Notes: generated by a model from the letters alone, not told the origin. Counted from the first letter of the stretch, positions 31,301 to 37,411 are shown. The stretch: 64,000 bases of DNA from Fimbriimonadaceae bacterium (GCA_019638775.1 JAHBTD010000003.1:496001-560000), one strand, 5' to 3'. Program-made: numbers and translations.

Positions 31301-31352
31301 TGCTTTTGTCCCAATCCTCACCTATAATAAAGATGTAGACATGATTCTACAT
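31300..31352 (+). promoter_or_regulatory. Promoter and palindromic operator of the DNA polymerase gene
   Basis: TTGCTT (31300-31305), 17 bases, TATAAT (31323-31328), then a perfect 7-6-7 palindrome, ATGTAGA / TCTACAT, at 31333-31352 over the expected transcription start. The position suits a repressor such as an SOS regulator, but the sequence does not match the LexA boxes I know. Confidence 0.6.
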
Positions 31353-32675
31353 TCTTTCACGAAGCAAGACCTGAAGCTTCGTTATATGTTTCTGGACCTG
31401 AACGCCTATTTTGCGAGTGTGGAACAGCAGATGGACCCCAAGCTTCGAGGGAAGCCTATTGCTGTGTCACCGGTAGATAACGATTCGTCCTGCGCTATTG
31501 CGGCCTCGTATGAGGCCAAGAAGTTTGGCGTCAAAACGGGGACTTCGATTCGGGAGGCCCGTTCGTTGTGCCCGGAGCTTATCGTTGTCACGGCCAAACA
31601 CGCCCTCTACACGCGCTTTCATAAGGCCATCGTTCACGCGGTAAACAGCGTCGTGCCGGTGGAAGAGGTTCGCAGCATTGATGAGATGTACTGCCGACTT
31701 TTGGGCGAAGAGCGTGAGAAGGAGAACGCCATCGCGATTGCTCACAAGGTGAAGGGGGCGATCCACGAGCAGGTTGGGGAGGTCATGCACTGCAGCGTTG
31801 GCATCGGTCCGAACGTTTTCCTTGCCAAGCAGGGCACCGAGCTCCAAAAGCCCAATGGACTGGTCGCCATCGAATCCAGTGACCTTCCCGATCGGCTATA
31901 TGGGATGGCGCTGATGGACTTTACGGGAATCAACCGTCGGATGAAGGCGCGGTTGAACGCGGCGGGCATCTTTAGCGCGGAGCAGCTTTGCGCTCGGTCG
32001 AAGGAGGAGCTGAGGCTGGCGTTTGGGTCGATCATCGGGGAGCAGTGGTGGTATAAGCTGCGGGGCTATGAGATTGAGGAGAGGGTTGTTCGTCATCAGT
32101 CGCTGAGCCATTCGCACGTGATGGCGCCGGAGTTTCGCTCCGATGAGGGCGCTCGCACCGTGCTCTTTCGGCTTTTGATGAAGGCGGCGGCTCGACTGCG
32201 GAGCGAGGGCTATATGGCGCGGGGGATGAGCGTTTGGGTGCGGGGGAAGAGCGCGAGTTGGGAAGCATCGACGCGCTTTACTGCAACTGACGACACGCCC
32301 ACGTTCTTGCAGTACACCTCCGAGCTTTGGAATGAGCGGACGTTCATCGACCCGCATCAGGCGGGGATTGTGTTTTACGATTTGATCAAGCCCGAGCTCA
32401 TCACGCCGAGTCTGTTTGACAACACGGTTCAGAAGCACAAACTCGCGGTGGCGGTGGACAAGATGAACAACCGATTTGGCAAGAATCATGTTTACGTGGG
32501 TTCGATGGAGCGGGCGCGAGACTCGGCTCCAGAGAGAGTCGCGTTTCTGAAGACGGACCTTTTTGTGGAGGGGCGCGGGGATCATTCGGAGTACGACACG
32601 CTGTTTCCGTGGTTGAACGATGCGCCTGAAATTCCGGAGCTTAGCTCCAGGCCGCGCGGTTGGGCGACGGTTTGA
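31341..32675 (+). CDS. Y-family DNA polymerase (DinB/UmuC type)
   Basis: Translesion DNA polymerase, 444 residues. Catalytic residues are present: the Asp in MFLDLNAYFASVEQQ (motif I, where the second acidic position is Asn as in UmuC) and SIDEMYC (motif III). CSVGIGPNVFLAKQGTELQK is the palm and FTGINRRMKARLNAAGIFSA the helix-hairpin-helix thumb. A C-terminal little-finger region follows. No beta-clamp motif is obvious. ATG 31341 lies only 12 bases after TATAAT, which would make a nearly leaderless mRNA. The in-frame ATG at 31386 (MFLDLNAYF) is a real alternative with a normal leader. The palindrome at 31333 suggests damage-inducible control. Confidence 0.87.
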   Translation: MILHSFTKQDLKLRYMFLDLNAYFASVEQQMDPKLRGKPIAVSPVDNDSSCAIAASYEAKKFGVKTGTSIREARSLCPELIVVTAKHALYTRFHKAIVHAVNSVVPVEEVRSIDEMYCRLLGEEREKENAIAIAHKVKGAIHEQVGEVMHCSVGIGPNVFLAKQGTELQKPNGLVAIESSDLPDRLYGMALMDFTGINRRMKARLNAAGIFSAEQLCARSKEELRLAFGSIIGEQWWYKLRGYEIEERVVRHQSLSHSHVMAPEFRSDEGARTVLFRLLMKAAARLRSEGYMARGMSVWVRGKSASWEASTRFTATDDTPTFLQYTSELWNERTFIDPHQAGIVFYDLIKPELITPSLFDNTVQKHKLAVAVDKMNNRFGKNHVYVGSMERARDSAPERVAFLKTDLFVEGRGDHSEYDTLFPWLNDAPEIPELSSRPRGWATV

Positions 32676-32703: not shown

Positions 32704-32940
32704 TTATGAGCCGAGGCTTCGGCGTTTTTTCTCAGCCTTTTGGCTTTGATCGATCGCGGTCTTCAATTCACGAATGGCATCCAGCGATTGGATGGACTCG
32801 GCGACTTGGAGGTTGAGGACCACATAACAAGAAGGGTTTGGGCAAGGGAAGGGCTTGGCCCGGACGAGGTCTTCCAGAGTCATCGGGATGAACGTTTTAC
32901 ATTCGGGGCAGGGCATTCCTGGCTGTTCGATTTTTAGCAT
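32704..32940 (-). CDS. Small zinc-ribbon protein of the DUF2589 cassette
   Basis: A 78-residue protein with a four-cysteine zinc-ribbon pattern: CPEC (11-14) and CPNPSC (33-38), separated by a short helix TLEDLVRAKPF, then an acidic/basic helix with KKRR near the end. It is the last gene of a four-gene minus-strand cassette, 11 bases after the preceding gene, with AAGGAAA before its ATG. No function is known. A ribbon of this kind could bind nucleic acid or a protein partner. Confidence 0.7.
   Translation of the reverse strand: MLKIEQPGMPCPECKTFIPMTLEDLVRAKPFPCPNPSCYVVLNLQVAESIQSLDAIRELKTAIDQSQKAEKKRRSLGS
32710..32730 (+). terminator. Terminator of the DNA polymerase gene
   Basis: GCCGA-GGCT-TCGGC followed by GTTTTTT. 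The stem is only 5 bp but G/C-rich with a good T-run. It overlaps the 3' end of the convergent zinc-ribbon gene. Confidence 0.55.
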
Positions 32941-32951
32941 GGTACGTTTCC

Positions 32952-33842
32952 TTAGGCTTGTACGGTAAAGGTGAGATTGGCGCGGATCTCGGACAGGTGT
33001 CCAAGTTGATCGGCGACGAGGGCAACAACGACGATTGTTTCCGACGTTGTTCCGGTGGGTGGGGCATTGACCACGACGACCGAGAACGATGCCTCTCCGT
33101 TGCGGTCGGTGATGATCTCCGTCGATTGCAGGCTGAATACGTTGTCGGGGCCTTGCATGAGGTTGAGCTTTTGACCAGGGATTGGGTTTTGGCTGGTGTC
33201 AAGAAGGGTTGCTTTGACGATGGTGAAGCTGCCCTTTCCGATAAGATTGGTGGTTTCGGGGTTGAGGGTTAGCGTCGGCATGTTTGGCTGTGTGGGCCTG
33301 ACGATGGTGCTGTTCGCCATACGATTCAGCAGTTGGAGAATGCCATCGGGGAAGTCCAGCTGCTTAATATTCACCGTCACTTCCATGTGCGCGCGTGTGG
33401 AGGGGCGCTCCTGCCCTGTTGGTTGGGGTGCGGCTACGCGGGCGAGCATCCGTGGAATCGGTTGGGGGGCGGGAAGGGCCGATGTGCTCAGGTTTTGAGT
33501 TTTGGCGACGGCGCTTTGAACCGGCTTGATGATGTTCACGCCGAACTTTACGGTTGCGTCTTGGATGCCCAGCGCGGGCAGGGTCAGCAAAGACAGCAGG
33601 GGGATTTTCAGCCGGACCGGTTCGACGCGTCCGTCTGGGAGCTGCTGTTCGTAGGTGAAGGCAACCATCTTCAACCGACCGAGCCCGTTGTTTGGATTGT
33701 CTGGATCGGGCTCGAAGCCGTGGGTCTGCACAAAGTCAGCGAAGCAGGATGCGGCGCGGGCGTCCGCGTCGATAAGGGCATTGAGCGGCATTGCGAAAAG
33801 CTCACCGAGTTCGAGAATGGTGGGGTCTTGACCGTCAGCCAT
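32952..33842 (-). CDS. DUF2589-like protein with C-terminal Ig-like domain
   Basis: A 296-residue protein without a signal peptide. The N-terminal half (1-110) follows the DUF2589 pattern: LGELFAMPLNALIDADARAA, then RLKMVAFTYEQQ and LKIPLLSLLTLPALGIQDAT with VKFGVNI. The second half (about 190-296) looks like a bacterial Ig-like (Big_1) fold: LTLNPETTNLIGKGSFTIVK and DRNGEASFSVVVVNAPPTG. GGAG precedes ATG 33842. Third gene of the cassette. Ig-like domains on a protein with no export signal suggest an intracellular assembly or an unusual release route. Function unknown. Confidence 0.72.
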   Translation of the reverse strand: MADGQDPTILELGELFAMPLNALIDADARAASCFADFVQTHGFEPDPDNPNNGLGRLKMVAFTYEQQLPDGRVEPVRLKIPLLSLLTLPALGIQDATVKFGVNIIKPVQSAVAKTQNLSTSALPAPQPIPRMLARVAAPQPTGQERPSTRAHMEVTVNIKQLDFPDGILQLLNRMANSTIVRPTQPNMPTLTLNPETTNLIGKGSFTIVKATLLDTSQNPIPGQKLNLMQGPDNVFSLQSTEIITDRNGEASFSVVVVNAPPTGTTSETIVVVALVADQLGHLSEIRANLTFTVQA

Positions 33843-33859
33843 GCTTGCTCCTGCGGGAT

Positions 33860-34366
33860 TTAGATCGAAACGCTCGACTCGGCATCGGCGACCCCCTCAT
33901 AAACTCGGATGCTCAGGTCGAGTTCGGTTATGCTTTGCGGTGGAAGCTTCGACAGTTTGTCGGCGTCTATGACAACCATTGCGCTGGACGTTCCCGTACC
34001 TTCGGTCGCGGACAGCCGCATCTGTGGCTCGTCCTGAATGGCAAATCTCAAACTTACGGAGACGGTCTCAATTTGGGCCTGGGGGACTTGGGTAAATCCC
34101 GTCGCACTATCGGCCGAGGAGTACAGCCCGCCAGCGTAGTCGTTCGCCAGCTTTTGGGCGTCGGTTACGGCGACAAGGATCGCCCCGAGAACATTATCGA
34201 GCGGGAGTCCGGTTGGGGCGGGTGGAGGCGTAGGTTGGCCCGGATTCAGCACGGGCTTCTCTGGGATTGCCGCGCTGCTGAACTCAGATGCCGAATCGGA
34301 ATTTTTTGGCGATGCCTGCGGTTTCGCCGGCTCTTGCTTACGCCGCCAAAAATCAAAAATTCCCAT
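33860..34366 (-). CDS. Cassette protein distantly DUF2589-like
   Basis: A 168-residue protein beginning MGIFDFWRRKQEPAKPQ, with a proline/serine-rich linker to about residue 52. The compact region LDNVLGAILVAVTDAQKLAN then aligns loosely with the start of DUF2589 (SLIGGPLDAAIEAQGKSA). QIETVSVSLRFAIQDEPQ and SITELDLSIRVYEG keep the family's order of beta strands. It sits between two DUF2589-like genes and is probably a smaller paralogue or partner. The family link is weak. Confidence 0.6.
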   Translation of the reverse strand: MGIFDFWRRKQEPAKPQASPKNSDSASEFSSAAIPEKPVLNPGQPTPPPAPTGLPLDNVLGAILVAVTDAQKLANDYAGGLYSSADSATGFTQVPQAQIETVSVSLRFAIQDEPQMRLSATEGTGTSSAMVVIDADKLSKLPPQSITELDLSIRVYEGVADAESSVSI

Positions 34367-34378
34367 AGTGAAATTCCT

Positions 34379-34405
34379 GCCCCCAGCGATAGGTTCGCTG
34401 GGGGC
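34379..34405 (-). promoter_or_regulatory. Hairpin inside the DUF2589 operon
   Basis: GCCCCCAGCG (34379-34388) pairs with 34396-34405 across a 7-base loop, between the first and second cassette genes. In the operon direction no T-run follows, so it is more likely an RNA-stability or attenuation element than a terminator. It could lower expression of the downstream genes relative to the first. Confidence 0.5.
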
Positions 34406-34420
34406 ATTTTGTTATCAGGC

Positions 34421-35353
34421 CTACGGAACAGCCGGTAGGTCGACCTGGAAGGTGCCGGTGATCGGCGCTGGCGCTGTGCCACCCGTTGGGGTGACTGGCT
34501 GCACCGAAACGGTAAAGGGCACCGTACTGGCAGGTGTCGTCGCTGTCGGAGCTGTATAAGTTCCTGTGAACGTATAGCTGCCCTGTGCGCTTGTCGTCGT
34601 TCCTGCGCCTGTCGCTGCCGTAAAGGCGACACCGCCTGCCGCAGTCGGCAGAGTTACCGTTGCACCCGGAACTACCTTGCTGTTCGAGTCGATGACGGTG
34701 ATCGTCACATCGAACGAGTGTGCAGTGCCGCTTGGTGCATAGGAAGTCTGATCGAAGTTCATGCGTCCAGAAGATGGCGTGACCTGCATCGTAATGCCGT
34801 CCTGAAGGATTTGCAGGACCTTGGCAAGGCCAGCGGGCATGTCGGTCTGTCCGGCCTCGACGTGGACGTCCATCGTGTACTCCACGGAGTACTTGGAGTC
34901 TTGCGTCGCTTTCGAGTCCTTCTTGCTGCTGTAGCTCGCGGACATGTCGAATTTGACACCCCAGAAGGAGCCGCCAACCGTGGCGGATGCGCCAACCGTT
35001 TGCGAACTTGTGTCTTCCTGCGAAGAGGAGCTTGACGCGTTGATGTTCGCTTTGAAATCGATCGTGATCAAGTTCACGGCAATGTACGGAATCGGCACGA
35101 TGGTGATGATCGGTACGATCAAGACTCGGTTGTTGCCGGAACCGTCGGTATAGGAGAAGCTGACGGTAACGGCGGTTTTATTGCCGTTTGCGTCGGTTTG
35201 CAAACCAACTTGCTGGATGAAATTGATGGTGTTGAGCGCAGACTTGCCCTGTGCTTCAATCGCTGCGTCGAGTGGTCCGCCGATGAGGCTGGAGAAAGGA
35301 ATTGCGGATAGCGACTGAGTCGCCACTTGTGAAGGTGTGGTATCGATAGCCAT
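34421..35353 (-). CDS. DUF2589 domain protein with C-terminal Ig-like domain
   Basis: A 310-residue protein without a signal peptide; first gene of the cassette. The DUF2589 pattern is clear: IPFSSLIGGPLDAAIEAQGK, NTINFIQQVGL, VSFSYTDGSGNNRVLIVPII, TIVPIPYIAVNLITIDFKAN. A serine-rich segment and SYSSKKDSKATQDSKYSVEY follow. From about residue 190 an Ig-like domain follows (VTITVIDSNSKVVPGATVTL, GSYTFTGTYTAPTATTP). I use ATG 35353 because GGGGAG stands just before it; the frame opens six codons earlier at 35371. A strong promoter lies at 35437-35466. Function unknown. Confidence 0.75.
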   Translation of the reverse strand: MAIDTTPSQVATQSLSAIPFSSLIGGPLDAAIEAQGKSALNTINFIQQVGLQTDANGNKTAVTVSFSYTDGSGNNRVLIVPIITIVPIPYIAVNLITIDFKANINASSSSSQEDTSSQTVGASATVGGSFWGVKFDMSASYSSKKDSKATQDSKYSVEYTMDVHVEAGQTDMPAGLAKVLQILQDGITMQVTPSSGRMNFDQTSYAPSGTAHSFDVTITVIDSNSKVVPGATVTLPTAAGGVAFTAATGAGTTTSAQGSYTFTGTYTAPTATTPASTVPFTVSVQPVTPTGGTAPAPITGTFQVDLPAVP

Positions 35354-35436
35354 ATGTCTCCCCAATCGCATCCTTGCGCCCAGCGACCCGACCGTCCAAG
35401 CGTAGGCAAGATGCCTTGTGGAGCCACTGTATTTCT

Positions 35437-35466
35437 ATCATAAGGCAATCTACAAAGACTTGTCAA
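35437..35466 (-). promoter_or_regulatory. Sigma-70-type promoter of the DUF2589 cassette
   Basis: On the minus strand: a perfect -35 TTGACA (35461-35466), 18 bases, then TATGAT (35437-35442). It points at the DUF2589 gene start at 35353, giving a leader of roughly 75 bases. The rest of 35467-35626 is AT-rich, with a TCACT/AGTGA inverted repeat near 35493 and no gene. Confidence 0.7.
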
Positions 35467-35626: not shown

Positions 35627-37411
35627 TCATTGACCTGTTCCCGATGAGCCTGCAGTGATGATAACGGGCGGCGGGTATTTGCCCATCGCGTCTATCTGCT
35701 TTCGTCTTTTGCGGGCGGTTTCCAAAACGTCGGGGCGCTTGTGGGGTGAATTTGCGGGCACGACGAACGCACGCTTGAACACCGGCCAAAACGGTTCAAT
35801 GTCGTGCGAAAGATCGAAAACCATCACGCCTTGCGTCGTTCCGGTAGCTCCCTGAAGCACGTTCATCAGCCCTTCGGGGTCGTCCTTGAATTGACTGAGC
35901 ATGATGCCCGCGACTGTCCATGTGCTGTCGCGCACGGCTCGGGCTGATAGGTAGCCCGCGGCTTCGACGGTGGCGCCGATGCCGACATTGTCTTCGAGGG
36001 CTTGATGGATAGTTCCAATTTTATAATAGCAACCAGTAACCAAAAAGTCGAGATCTGATGCGTAGCCTGTTTTCTGATACTCGGGGGTAAGGAACCAGAA
36101 TCCTCCGTCGAAAGAATCGCCCGCCCAGTTGTTGCCGAGTGAAGGATATTCCCCATACCAGCTTCCAGCATAAACTCCAAGTTGTGCGTCAGGCTGTATG
36201 CTGCGTATCCAGGCTCGGGCGCGCTGCACAAATTTTCGCAAAGTCATCGCTCGAAAAGCCATCCAAGCGTCATAGTACGGTCCAAGACTTAATCCTTTTT
36301 CCAGCTTAGTTGTGTAGGTGTATCGGAAAACATCTTGGGGCCATTGCAATCTCTTGCCAACGAGCCTTTCAAATTCTGCACGGGTGGATTCTGAGAAATC
36401 GGCGTAGAGCCCAGCGTATCGCAGGCGGTCATCATAGACGATTCCGTCGATCTTGTAATTTCGGATCAGCTCTGAGGCGATGTCGAGCGCACGCTGCTGC
36501 ATGTTCCCGTTGTGCGGGTTCATCATCAGCGGATATTGCAGGCTTGGTCGCTCTCCGGTCCGCACGAATTGTGCGCGGGTGTCGAGCTTGATCCGATCTC
36601 CGGGCCAAACATGCTCCTTTAGGAATTGGGCAGCTTTGCCTCGCCCAACGAGGGCGATTCCTTGGCGAGGGATCGTCGGTTTGATCGTCTTCACACCTGC
36701 GCCAGCAAAGCCATCGACCACTCGCAGATCGGGGGTGAGGGTCACGGCAAAGAGGGCGGGATCAGGGGTGGGCAGCTTTGAGGCATCGGTGAATGCGCCG
36801 AGACTATCCTCGCCATCGGGCATTTTGTTTGACGTTTGCGAGATGTCAAATGAAGTGGTTCGGGTGATTACCTGCGGTACGGCCTCGTAGATGACGGACT
36901 GGAGGTCGAGCATTTGGTAGCCAGGGCCTTCGGTGAAGAGGTTGTGCCCCTCACTGAAGGCATTTAGGCTGACAAAGAAGGAGAGTCCGGCAGCCTTTGC
37001 TCTGGGCGCCATTACTTCAAGCGGGTCGAAGTCGGGGCTCAGCTTTTGGCCCTTCCATTCTAGGATTTTGGGTGAGATTTTGCTTTTGTAGAGGACCTGT
37101 CCGCTGATCGGCTTGACGTCGAAGACGACAGTGTTGAAGCCGGAATCTTTGATCTGGGCGATCAGCTTGTCGATTTTTTCGACTGAGCCGACCCTTTCCA
37201 GGTTTGCGGTGCCATCGATCCAGAGCATTCGCGACTGCAGGTTATTCGCTTTTGCCAGTTCATTTGCGTAGCCCCACCCAGCCATTCGGCGGTCAAGCAT
37301 GACCTGAGGCGCGCCTTGCAACGGCGCAGACATTTGGAAGCGTGGGGGCGGAAGCTGAACCTTCTCGGGAGTTTGGGCGATGGCAGCGGCAAGACCAAGA
37401 GCAGACAGCAT
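35627..37411 (-). CDS. GHL10-type glycoside hydrolase-like protein
   Basis: A 594-residue exported protein. N-terminus MLSALGLAAAIAQTPE looks like a short signal peptide. It follows the glycosyl-hydrolase-like 10 pattern: SRMLWIDGTANLERVGSVEK, IKDSGFNTVVFDVKPISGQV, AAGLSFFVSLNAFSEG, then NYKIDGIVYDDRLRYAGLYA and LRKFVQRARAWIRSIQPDAQ. A TIM-barrel enzyme probably acting on surface or environmental polysaccharide; substrates of GHL10 proteins are mostly unknown. It lies downstream of a DUF1800 gene, with a terminator between them. Confidence 0.72.
   Translation of the reverse strand: MLSALGLAAAIAQTPEKVQLPPPRFQMSAPLQGAPQVMLDRRMAGWGYANELAKANNLQSRMLWIDGTANLERVGSVEKIDKLIAQIKDSGFNTVVFDVKPISGQVLYKSKISPKILEWKGQKLSPDFDPLEVMAPRAKAAGLSFFVSLNAFSEGHNLFTEGPGYQMLDLQSVIYEAVPQVITRTTSFDISQTSNKMPDGEDSLGAFTDASKLPTPDPALFAVTLTPDLRVVDGFAGAGVKTIKPTIPRQGIALVGRGKAAQFLKEHVWPGDRIKLDTRAQFVRTGERPSLQYPLMMNPHNGNMQQRALDIASELIRNYKIDGIVYDDRLRYAGLYADFSESTRAEFERLVGKRLQWPQDVFRYTYTTKLEKGLSLGPYYDAWMAFRAMTLRKFVQRARAWIRSIQPDAQLGVYAGSWYGEYPSLGNNWAGDSFDGGFWFLTPEYQKTGYASDLDFLVTGCYYKIGTIHQALEDNVGIGATVEAAGYLSARAVRDSTWTVAGIMLSQFKDDPEGLMNVLQGATGTTQGVMVFDLSHDIEPFWPVFKRAFVVPANSPHKRPDVLETARKRRKQIDAMGKYPPPVIITAGSSGTGQ

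What the first reader, a model, noticed from the sequence alone, without database searches (positions are those of the whole stretch)
32704..35466. Four-gene DUF2589/Ig-like/zinc-ribbon cassette of unknown function
A strong promoter (TTGACA, 18 bases, TATGAT) drives four close-packed genes: two DUF2589-type proteins with C-terminal Ig-like domains, one smaller related protein and a C4 zinc-ribbon protein. None has a signal peptide or known enzyme motif. Paralogous subunits with Ig-like tails and a small ribbon partner look like parts of a cytoplasmic assembly that may be released or displayed by an unusual route. A hairpin after the first gene could set subunit ratios. This is the best candidate here for an undescribed system.
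Basis: partly seen in the sequence, partly recalled or inferred. Interest (0 to 1): 0.7.

Follow-up and report, generated by a model that had tools for sequence, protein, structure and literature searches.

The report
Undescribed DUF2589 multi-subunit gene cassette
Four neighbouring genes in an Armatimonadota bacterium form a cassette that recurs, in the same order, in many gut Bacteroidota and Akkermansia; elsewhere its core proteins sit beside many unrelated cell-wall-cutting enzymes and also occur in phages, which points to a widespread, uncharacterised cytoplasmic complex that works at, or is released through, the cell wall.

Summary
On the minus strand, one promoter precedes A (DUF2589 + Ig-like tail), B (short, distantly related), C (DUF2589 + Ig-like tail) and D (C4 zinc ribbon). 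DUF2589 genes fall into three tree clades, and each clade has its own gene order: I (A-B-C-D), II (three genes, also in archaea) and III (a pair, also in at least 181 viral contigs). A, B and C look like one superfamily by profile comparison. The new finding is genomic: within 3.5 kb of DUF2589 genes lie peptidoglycan hydrolases of seven unrelated families (35 hits, 26 of them not search queries); beyond that, in nearly equal sequence, one (itself a query). Type I operons usually also carry a LytTR regulator. The window's copy lacks both, and its genome shows no PF11860 muramidase. No solved structure, defence family or paper explains the proteins. Most likely they build a cytoplasmic assembly that acts at, or leaves through, the cell wall with an interchangeable hydrolase. 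The last step is inference.

The parts
35437..35466 (-). sigma-70-type promoter TTGACA-18-TATGAT, about 84 nt before the start of gene A
   Evidence: 11 of 12 matches
34421..35353 (-). gene A, 310 aa: DUF2589 domain (residues 19-184) with C-terminal Ig-like tail
   Evidence: PF11655 E=2.9e-26; 41-60% identical to A of gut Bacteroidota and Akkermansia; AF2 model with a long helix 20-50 and beta sheet
34523..34720 (-). Ig-like tail of A (residues 212-277)
   Evidence: Big_1 22.4 bits, below the Pfam cut-off of 34.9
34378..34406 (-). 12-bp GC-rich hairpin between A and B, ending 11 nt before the B start codon; no T-run on the coding strand
   Evidence: z -4.2; single copy in the window
33860..34366 (-). 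gene B, 168 aa: shortened form of the ~261-aa B family (helix + beta strands; the helical insert of relatives is missing; extra 50-aa N-terminal extension)
   Evidence: alignment; B-family model pLDDT 89; B family ~ F2 family 97.8%
32952..33842 (-). gene C, 296 aa: second DUF2589 paralogue with Ig-like tail
   Evidence: PF11655 E=6e-17; groups with C genes of other cassettes, support 100/99
33015..33272 (-). Ig-like tail of C (residues 191-276)
   Evidence: Big_1 E=1.5e-6, 28.6 bits, below the cut-off of 34.9
32704..32940 (-). gene D, 78 aa: C4 zinc-ribbon protein (CPEC...CPNPSC)
   Evidence: homologue of D in L006, E=1e-12; cysteines invariant in 15 sequences

Best explanation
The cassette encodes a cytoplasmic multi-subunit complex. 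A, B and C are diverged copies of one helix-plus-beta subunit and co-assemble, probably through their shared N-terminal helix; D is a small zinc-ribbon partner; the Ig-like tails of A and C face outward as binding or spacing modules. The complex acts at, or leaves the cell through, the cell wall with the help of a peptidoglycan hydrolase. That hydrolase is often encoded in the same operon and is exchanged freely between lineages. In this genome the core stands alone, so the wall-cutting step would use another enzyme. Shown: the genes, their paralogy, the recurrence of the gene set, and the proximity to hydrolases in relatives. Inferred: co-assembly, outward-facing tails, and the functional coupling to wall cutting.
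For: A-B-C-D order in 20 of 29 type I loci and in L114. Three tree clades match three gene orders. A, B, C and the small type III subunit are linked by profiles: 98% small~A, 97.8% B~F2, 76% small~B. Hydrolases near DUF2589: PF11860 muramidase, GH108, GH24, Amidase_3, M15, SLT, GH19 endolysin. By local search 35 hits lie within 3.5 kb and 1 beyond in nearly equal sequence; without the query genes themselves 26 against 0. Of five loci fetched after the pattern was noticed, three carry one (L214, L215, L216). The four type I muramidases checked have no signal-peptide-like N-terminus or transmembrane stretch. LytTR gene upstream in 18 of 29. DUF2589 domains also carry DUF6734, Big_2 or other long tails, as expected of a modular scaffold.
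Against: The window's own copy has no hydrolase or LytTR gene beside it, and its genome has no PF11860 hit, while the same search finds one in two other genomes. Nearly all type II systems, including archaeal ones, have no hydrolase neighbour. In most of the marine phages listed the pair lies in the early-gene strand, convergent with the presumed lysis genes. No complex was modelled. Genomic proximity is not function, and many loci are related, so independent events are fewer than 26.
Confidence: 0.4

Rival explanations
1. The DUF2589 proteins are themselves the membrane-breaching part: a holin-like or membrane-permeabilising complex that lets a signal-less peptidoglycan hydrolase reach the wall.
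For: Muramidases without signal peptide and no obvious holin gene in most type I operons. The extra type I protein F7 starts with a cationic amphipathic helix (median muH 0.56, charge +4; background median 0.32). In some phages the pair follows a holin or a small membrane protein (L089 GTA_holin_3TM; L088, L092, L153 by reading).
Against: No transmembrane segment in A-D. In L089 the phage already has a holin. In most phages listed the pair is not on the strand of the presumed lysis genes. The type II forms of archaea have no wall enzyme nearby.
Confidence: 0.17
2. It is part of a toxin or effector delivery system against other cells: the hydrolases, phospholipases and proteases nearby are the effectors and the DUF2589 proteins are carriers or adaptors.
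For: Neighbours include a Tle1-like phospholipase (L086), patatin (L119), subtilase (L117) and trypsin-like protease (L115), an annotated M91 metallopeptidase (L004), a PLC-like protein (L079, by reading), and DUF2589 domains fused to other long domains.
Against: No secretion or injection gene recurs next to the cassettes in the gene families clustered. No fold match to a known adaptor stands above noise. No immunity gene was identified. The window copy has no effector candidate.
Confidence: 0.2
3. It is a general cytoplasmic complex (storage, stress, regulatory or chaperone-like) without a specific role at the wall; hydrolase genes are passengers of islands that carry it.
For: Wide, patchy distribution including archaea; type II operons without hydrolases among ordinary genes; the Archaeoglobus genes AF0414-AF0417 are up-regulated on lactate (PMC3949148).
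Against: Hydrolase proximity is strong, mostly same-strand, and involves seven enzyme families in unrelated hosts.
Confidence: 0.18
4. It is an anti-phage defence system.
For: Patchy, apparently transferred distribution (2 of 291, 15 of 247 and 7 of 299 genomes); patatin and subtilase neighbours resemble effectors in PADLOC.
Against: A-D and the B, F1 and F2 families have no convincing PADLOC match (best 14 bits). Many phages carry the pair themselves.
Confidence: 0.05

Closest known systems
Pfam PF11655 (DUF2589)
   Same: A and C are members, above the curated cut-off
   Different: the Pfam entry gives no function, operon or partner; B and D are outside it
Type I DUF2589 operons of gut Bacteroidota and Akkermansia (found here, no name in the papers searched)
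   Same: A-B-C-D gene order, A 41-60% identical, zinc-ribbon cysteines
   Different: the window lacks the LytTR gene, F7 and the muramidase; its B lacks the helical insert; its C carries an Ig-like tail
Type 10 secretion / lysis cassettes (holin-endolysin-spanin), e.g. of Yersinia entomophaga and Salmonella (PMC10847048, PMC13284979)
   Same: relatives pair cytoplasmic proteins with an endolysin-type peptidoglycan hydrolase
   Different: no holin or spanin recognised in type I operons, and no hydrolase at all beside the window's cassette

Membership tests
DUF2589 (PF11655) | match above the Pfam cut-off of 23 bits | tested here: met
   A 93 bits, C 63 bits
DUF2589 (PF11655) | gene B itself matches the Pfam model | tested here: not met
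   no Pfam hit for B; related only through profiles
Type I DUF2589 operon (defined here) | gene order A-B-C-D on one strand | tested here: met
   window; 20 loci
Type I DUF2589 operon (defined here) | A and C fall in the A and C clades of type I | tested here: met
   tree: WIN_C with C genes 100/99; WIN_A with type I A genes 95/79, long branch
Type I DUF2589 operon (defined here) | LytTR regulator upstream and PF11860 muramidase downstream (common, not universal) | tested here: not met
   window neighbours are GHL10 and Pol IV; no PF11860 in the genome. The muramidase is also missing beside the cassette in some relatives (L114, Akkermansia)
Lysis cassette / type 10 secretion | holin and endolysin in the operon | tested here: not met
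   no transmembrane segment in A-D; no hydrolase family found in A-D
Known anti-phage defence systems | match to PADLOC-DB models | tested here: not met
   A-D no hit
Contractile or phage-tail-like particles | tube, sheath and baseplate genes nearby | tested here: inconclusive
   no meaningful PHROG hit for A-D; neighbouring ORFs were inspected in 24-44 kb of the window but only some were scanned
Any protein of known fold | fold match in the PDB | tested here: inconclusive
   no sequence match; best Z 3.9 for A (model pLDDT 65) and 7.1 for the helical insert of B

The most novel reading that the evidence does not exclude
DUF2589-superfamily paralogues form a new class of prokaryotic cytoplasmic particle, shared by bacteria, archaea and phages, that is coupled to an interchangeable peptidoglycan hydrolase for release or wall breaching.
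Probability: 0.3. Interest if true: 0.85.

Novelty: categorically new. Interest (0 to 1): 0.63.

Why it matters
A widespread multi-gene system, present in common human gut bacteria (Segatella copri, Bacteroides, Akkermansia), in archaea and in many phages, appears to have no description: only one paper in the library names the domain, in passing. Its recurrent link to cell-wall-cutting enzymes turns a protein of unknown function into a testable hypothesis.

Tried and rejected
Sequence searches of the PDB with the A and F2 profiles found nothing. Fold searches of A and B found only noise-level matches: SecB and SciW at Z 3.1-3.9, Cse1/globin-like helical bundles at Z 4-7; no conclusion drawn. 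An empty-site comparison failed: relatives carry the upstream GHL10 gene, but the other flanks are not syntenic. Direct profile comparison of B with A gave no significant link; the link runs through the type III small subunit. A simple 'phage lysis gene' reading was weakened because in most listed marine phages the pair is on the early-gene strand. The 'phage' record MT839761 was rejected as evidence of phage carriage because it is 96.9% identical to Segatella copri. The zinc ribbon often near the phage pair (PF09723) is not detectably related to D. Paper searches for DUF2589, PF11655 and IPR024510 found one passing mention.

Full report
Observation. All lie on the minus strand behind an 11-of-12 sigma-70-type promoter: A 34421-35353, B 33860-34366, C 32952-33842, D 32704-32940. 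A and C carry DUF2589 (PF11655, E 2.9e-26 and 6e-17). Their tails resemble Ig-like Big_1 domains but stay below the Pfam cut-off. B has no Pfam match. D has four cysteines that are invariant in 15 homologues. No transmembrane stretch or signal peptide is evident. The hairpin between A and B is stable (z -4.2) but has no T-run on the coding strand, so it is not a terminator for this operon.

Host and rarity. A Chthonomonas MAG contig (L066) contains the DUF2589 locus of genome G029, which the search tool places in the same phylum as the window (identity checked), so the window is from Armatimonadota. Only 2 of 291 genomes of the phylum have DUF2589; in Bacteroidota it is 15 of 247 (four of these are short N-terminal matches) and in Pseudomonadota 7 of 299. 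The distribution is patchy, as for an accessory, transferable set.

Recurrence. A scan of public genomes returned 80 loci and a first viral scan 11. Clustering the surrounding open frames gave three architectures. Type I (Bacteroidota of the gut, Akkermansia, the window): A, B, C, D in order in 20 of 29 loci with a B gene, usually preceded by a LytTR regulator (18 of 29) and followed by a PF11860 muramidase with a PG-binding domain (17 of 29). A further Bacteroidota genome (L114) has A-B-C-D without a muramidase beside it, like the window, though it has one elsewhere (G378). Type II: A-like, B-like (F2) and a third protein (F1), in proteobacteria, Flavobacteria, Clostridia, Anaerolineae, methanogens and Chthonomonas. 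Type III: a small and a large DUF2589 protein, usually in bacteria with a 90-aa partner (F8). A tree of the large subunit separates the three types; window A falls with type I and window C with the type I C genes (100/99). Window A has a long branch and its exact donor cannot be named; the Chthonomonas copy is type II, so the two Armatimonadota copies have separate histories.

One superfamily. The B family of type I matches F2 of type II (97.8%, E 7e-13). The type III small subunit matches the large subunit (98%, E 2e-13) and, more weakly, the B family over the N-terminal helix and following strand (76%, E 2e-5). Direct B-to-A comparison is not significant. So A, B and C are probably diverged copies of one helix-plus-beta subunit. 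AlphaFold2 gave a moderate model of window A (pLDDT 65; helix 20-50 and first strands 80-90) and a good model of the B family (pLDDT 89), in which a helical domain is inserted that the window's B lacks. Neither matches a solved fold above noise.

Peptidoglycan hydrolases. Around type III and type I sets the neighbours include, by Pfam, muramidase PF11860, GH108, GH24 lysozyme, Amidase_3, GH46 and SLT, an M15 D-Ala-D-Ala-type peptidase near a type II set, and by PDB similarity GH19 endolysins (E 1e-39) and another M15 endopeptidase (E 4.5e-5). concern two of the five loci fetched after the pattern had been noticed; three of those five (L214, L215, L216) have a hydrolase close by. A local search of 94 bacterial and archaeal loci with 12 such enzymes found 35 hits within 3.5 kb of DUF2589 in 599 kb, and one beyond in 561 kb. 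Nine of the near hits and the far one are the query genes themselves; without them the count is 26 to 0 (binomial p 3e-8), which overstates independence because many type I loci are related. Even so, seven enzyme families and many unrelated hosts are involved, and 30 of the 36 hits are on the same strand as a DUF2589 gene. Most type II loci have none.

Phages. A type III scan of viral contigs found 181 relatives, 80 kept. The small-large pair is almost always kept together. In most of the listed marine contigs it ends an operon with YqaJ and RecT recombination genes and meets, 3' end to 3' end, small membrane proteins and other genes that I read as a lysis group (no Pfam support). In L089 the pair lies between a GTA_holin_3TM gene and a GH24 lysozyme on the same strand. 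Phage position therefore does not settle the function.

Mechanism. I favour a cytoplasmic multi-subunit complex built from A, B and C with D as a small partner, which acts at or leaves through the wall with an interchangeable hydrolase (0.4). Rivals are a membrane-breaching role of the DUF2589 proteins themselves, an effector-delivery role, a general cytoplasmic role, and defence. The window's copy is a core without hydrolase and LytTR gene, and its genome has no PF11860 hit, while the same search finds one in two of three other genomes. The gene directly upstream (GHL10, same strand, 273 nt away) belongs, as I recall, to the family of E. coli DigH, a peptidoglycan glycosyl hydrolase (DigH: PMC12288456; family assignment from my own knowledge). 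But 26 of 31 sampled genomes, the window's included, have this gene, and only 2 of 291 in the phylum have DUF2589, so I do not count it as evidence.

Novelty. The library holds one paper that names DUF2589, in a list of lactate-induced genes of Archaeoglobus. No fold, defence model or named system fits, so I cannot place it in a known kind. 'Categorically new' here means undescribed and unplaced; if a holin-like role were shown it would become a new variant of lysis systems.

Noticed in passing
L006 (MT839761.1): GenBank 'Bacteriophage sp.' 4-kb record is 96.9% identical over 3.9 kb to Segatella copri strain Indica (L011) and holds a bacterial type I operon; it is probably mislabelled.
   Followed up: yes
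L007 6832-15113 and L033 2734-9488: Expanded clusters with four to five DUF2589 paralogues; one carries DUF6734 plus a Big_2 domain and another a long tail that reads like leucine-rich repeats, as if DUF2589 were an adaptor domain for varied cargo.
   Followed up: partly
L120-L199: At least 181 viral contigs, many marine, encode a DUF2589 pair, typically after YqaJ and RecT genes; a small same-strand CxxC protein lies nearby in 27 of 76, against 1 of 36 distant control stretches.
   Followed up: partly
family F7, e.g. L027 10560-11090 and L014 10563-11090: A ~160-aa protein between D and the muramidase starts with a cationic amphipathic helix (median muH 0.56, charge +4) and has no Pfam family.
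   Followed up: partly
L111, L112, L113: Short DUF2589 matches (first ~45 positions only) with near-identical antisense reading frames in different Bacteroidota genomes look like decayed copies of a type III gene.
   Followed up: no
window 32710-32733, + strand: Terminator-like hairpin with T-run just after the Pol IV gene (31341-32675, +), overlapping the 3' end of gene D on the other strand.
   Followed up: no
window 35627-37411, - strand: GHL10/DUF4985 glycosyl hydrolase-like gene directly upstream of the cassette on the same strand; present in 26 of 31 sampled genomes including this one, so adjacency is probably incidental.
   Followed up: partly
L117 2076-3332 and L118 6381-7643: Type II sets of two Flavobacteria-like genomes are followed by a subtilase with an N-terminal extension and no signal peptide.
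   Followed up: no
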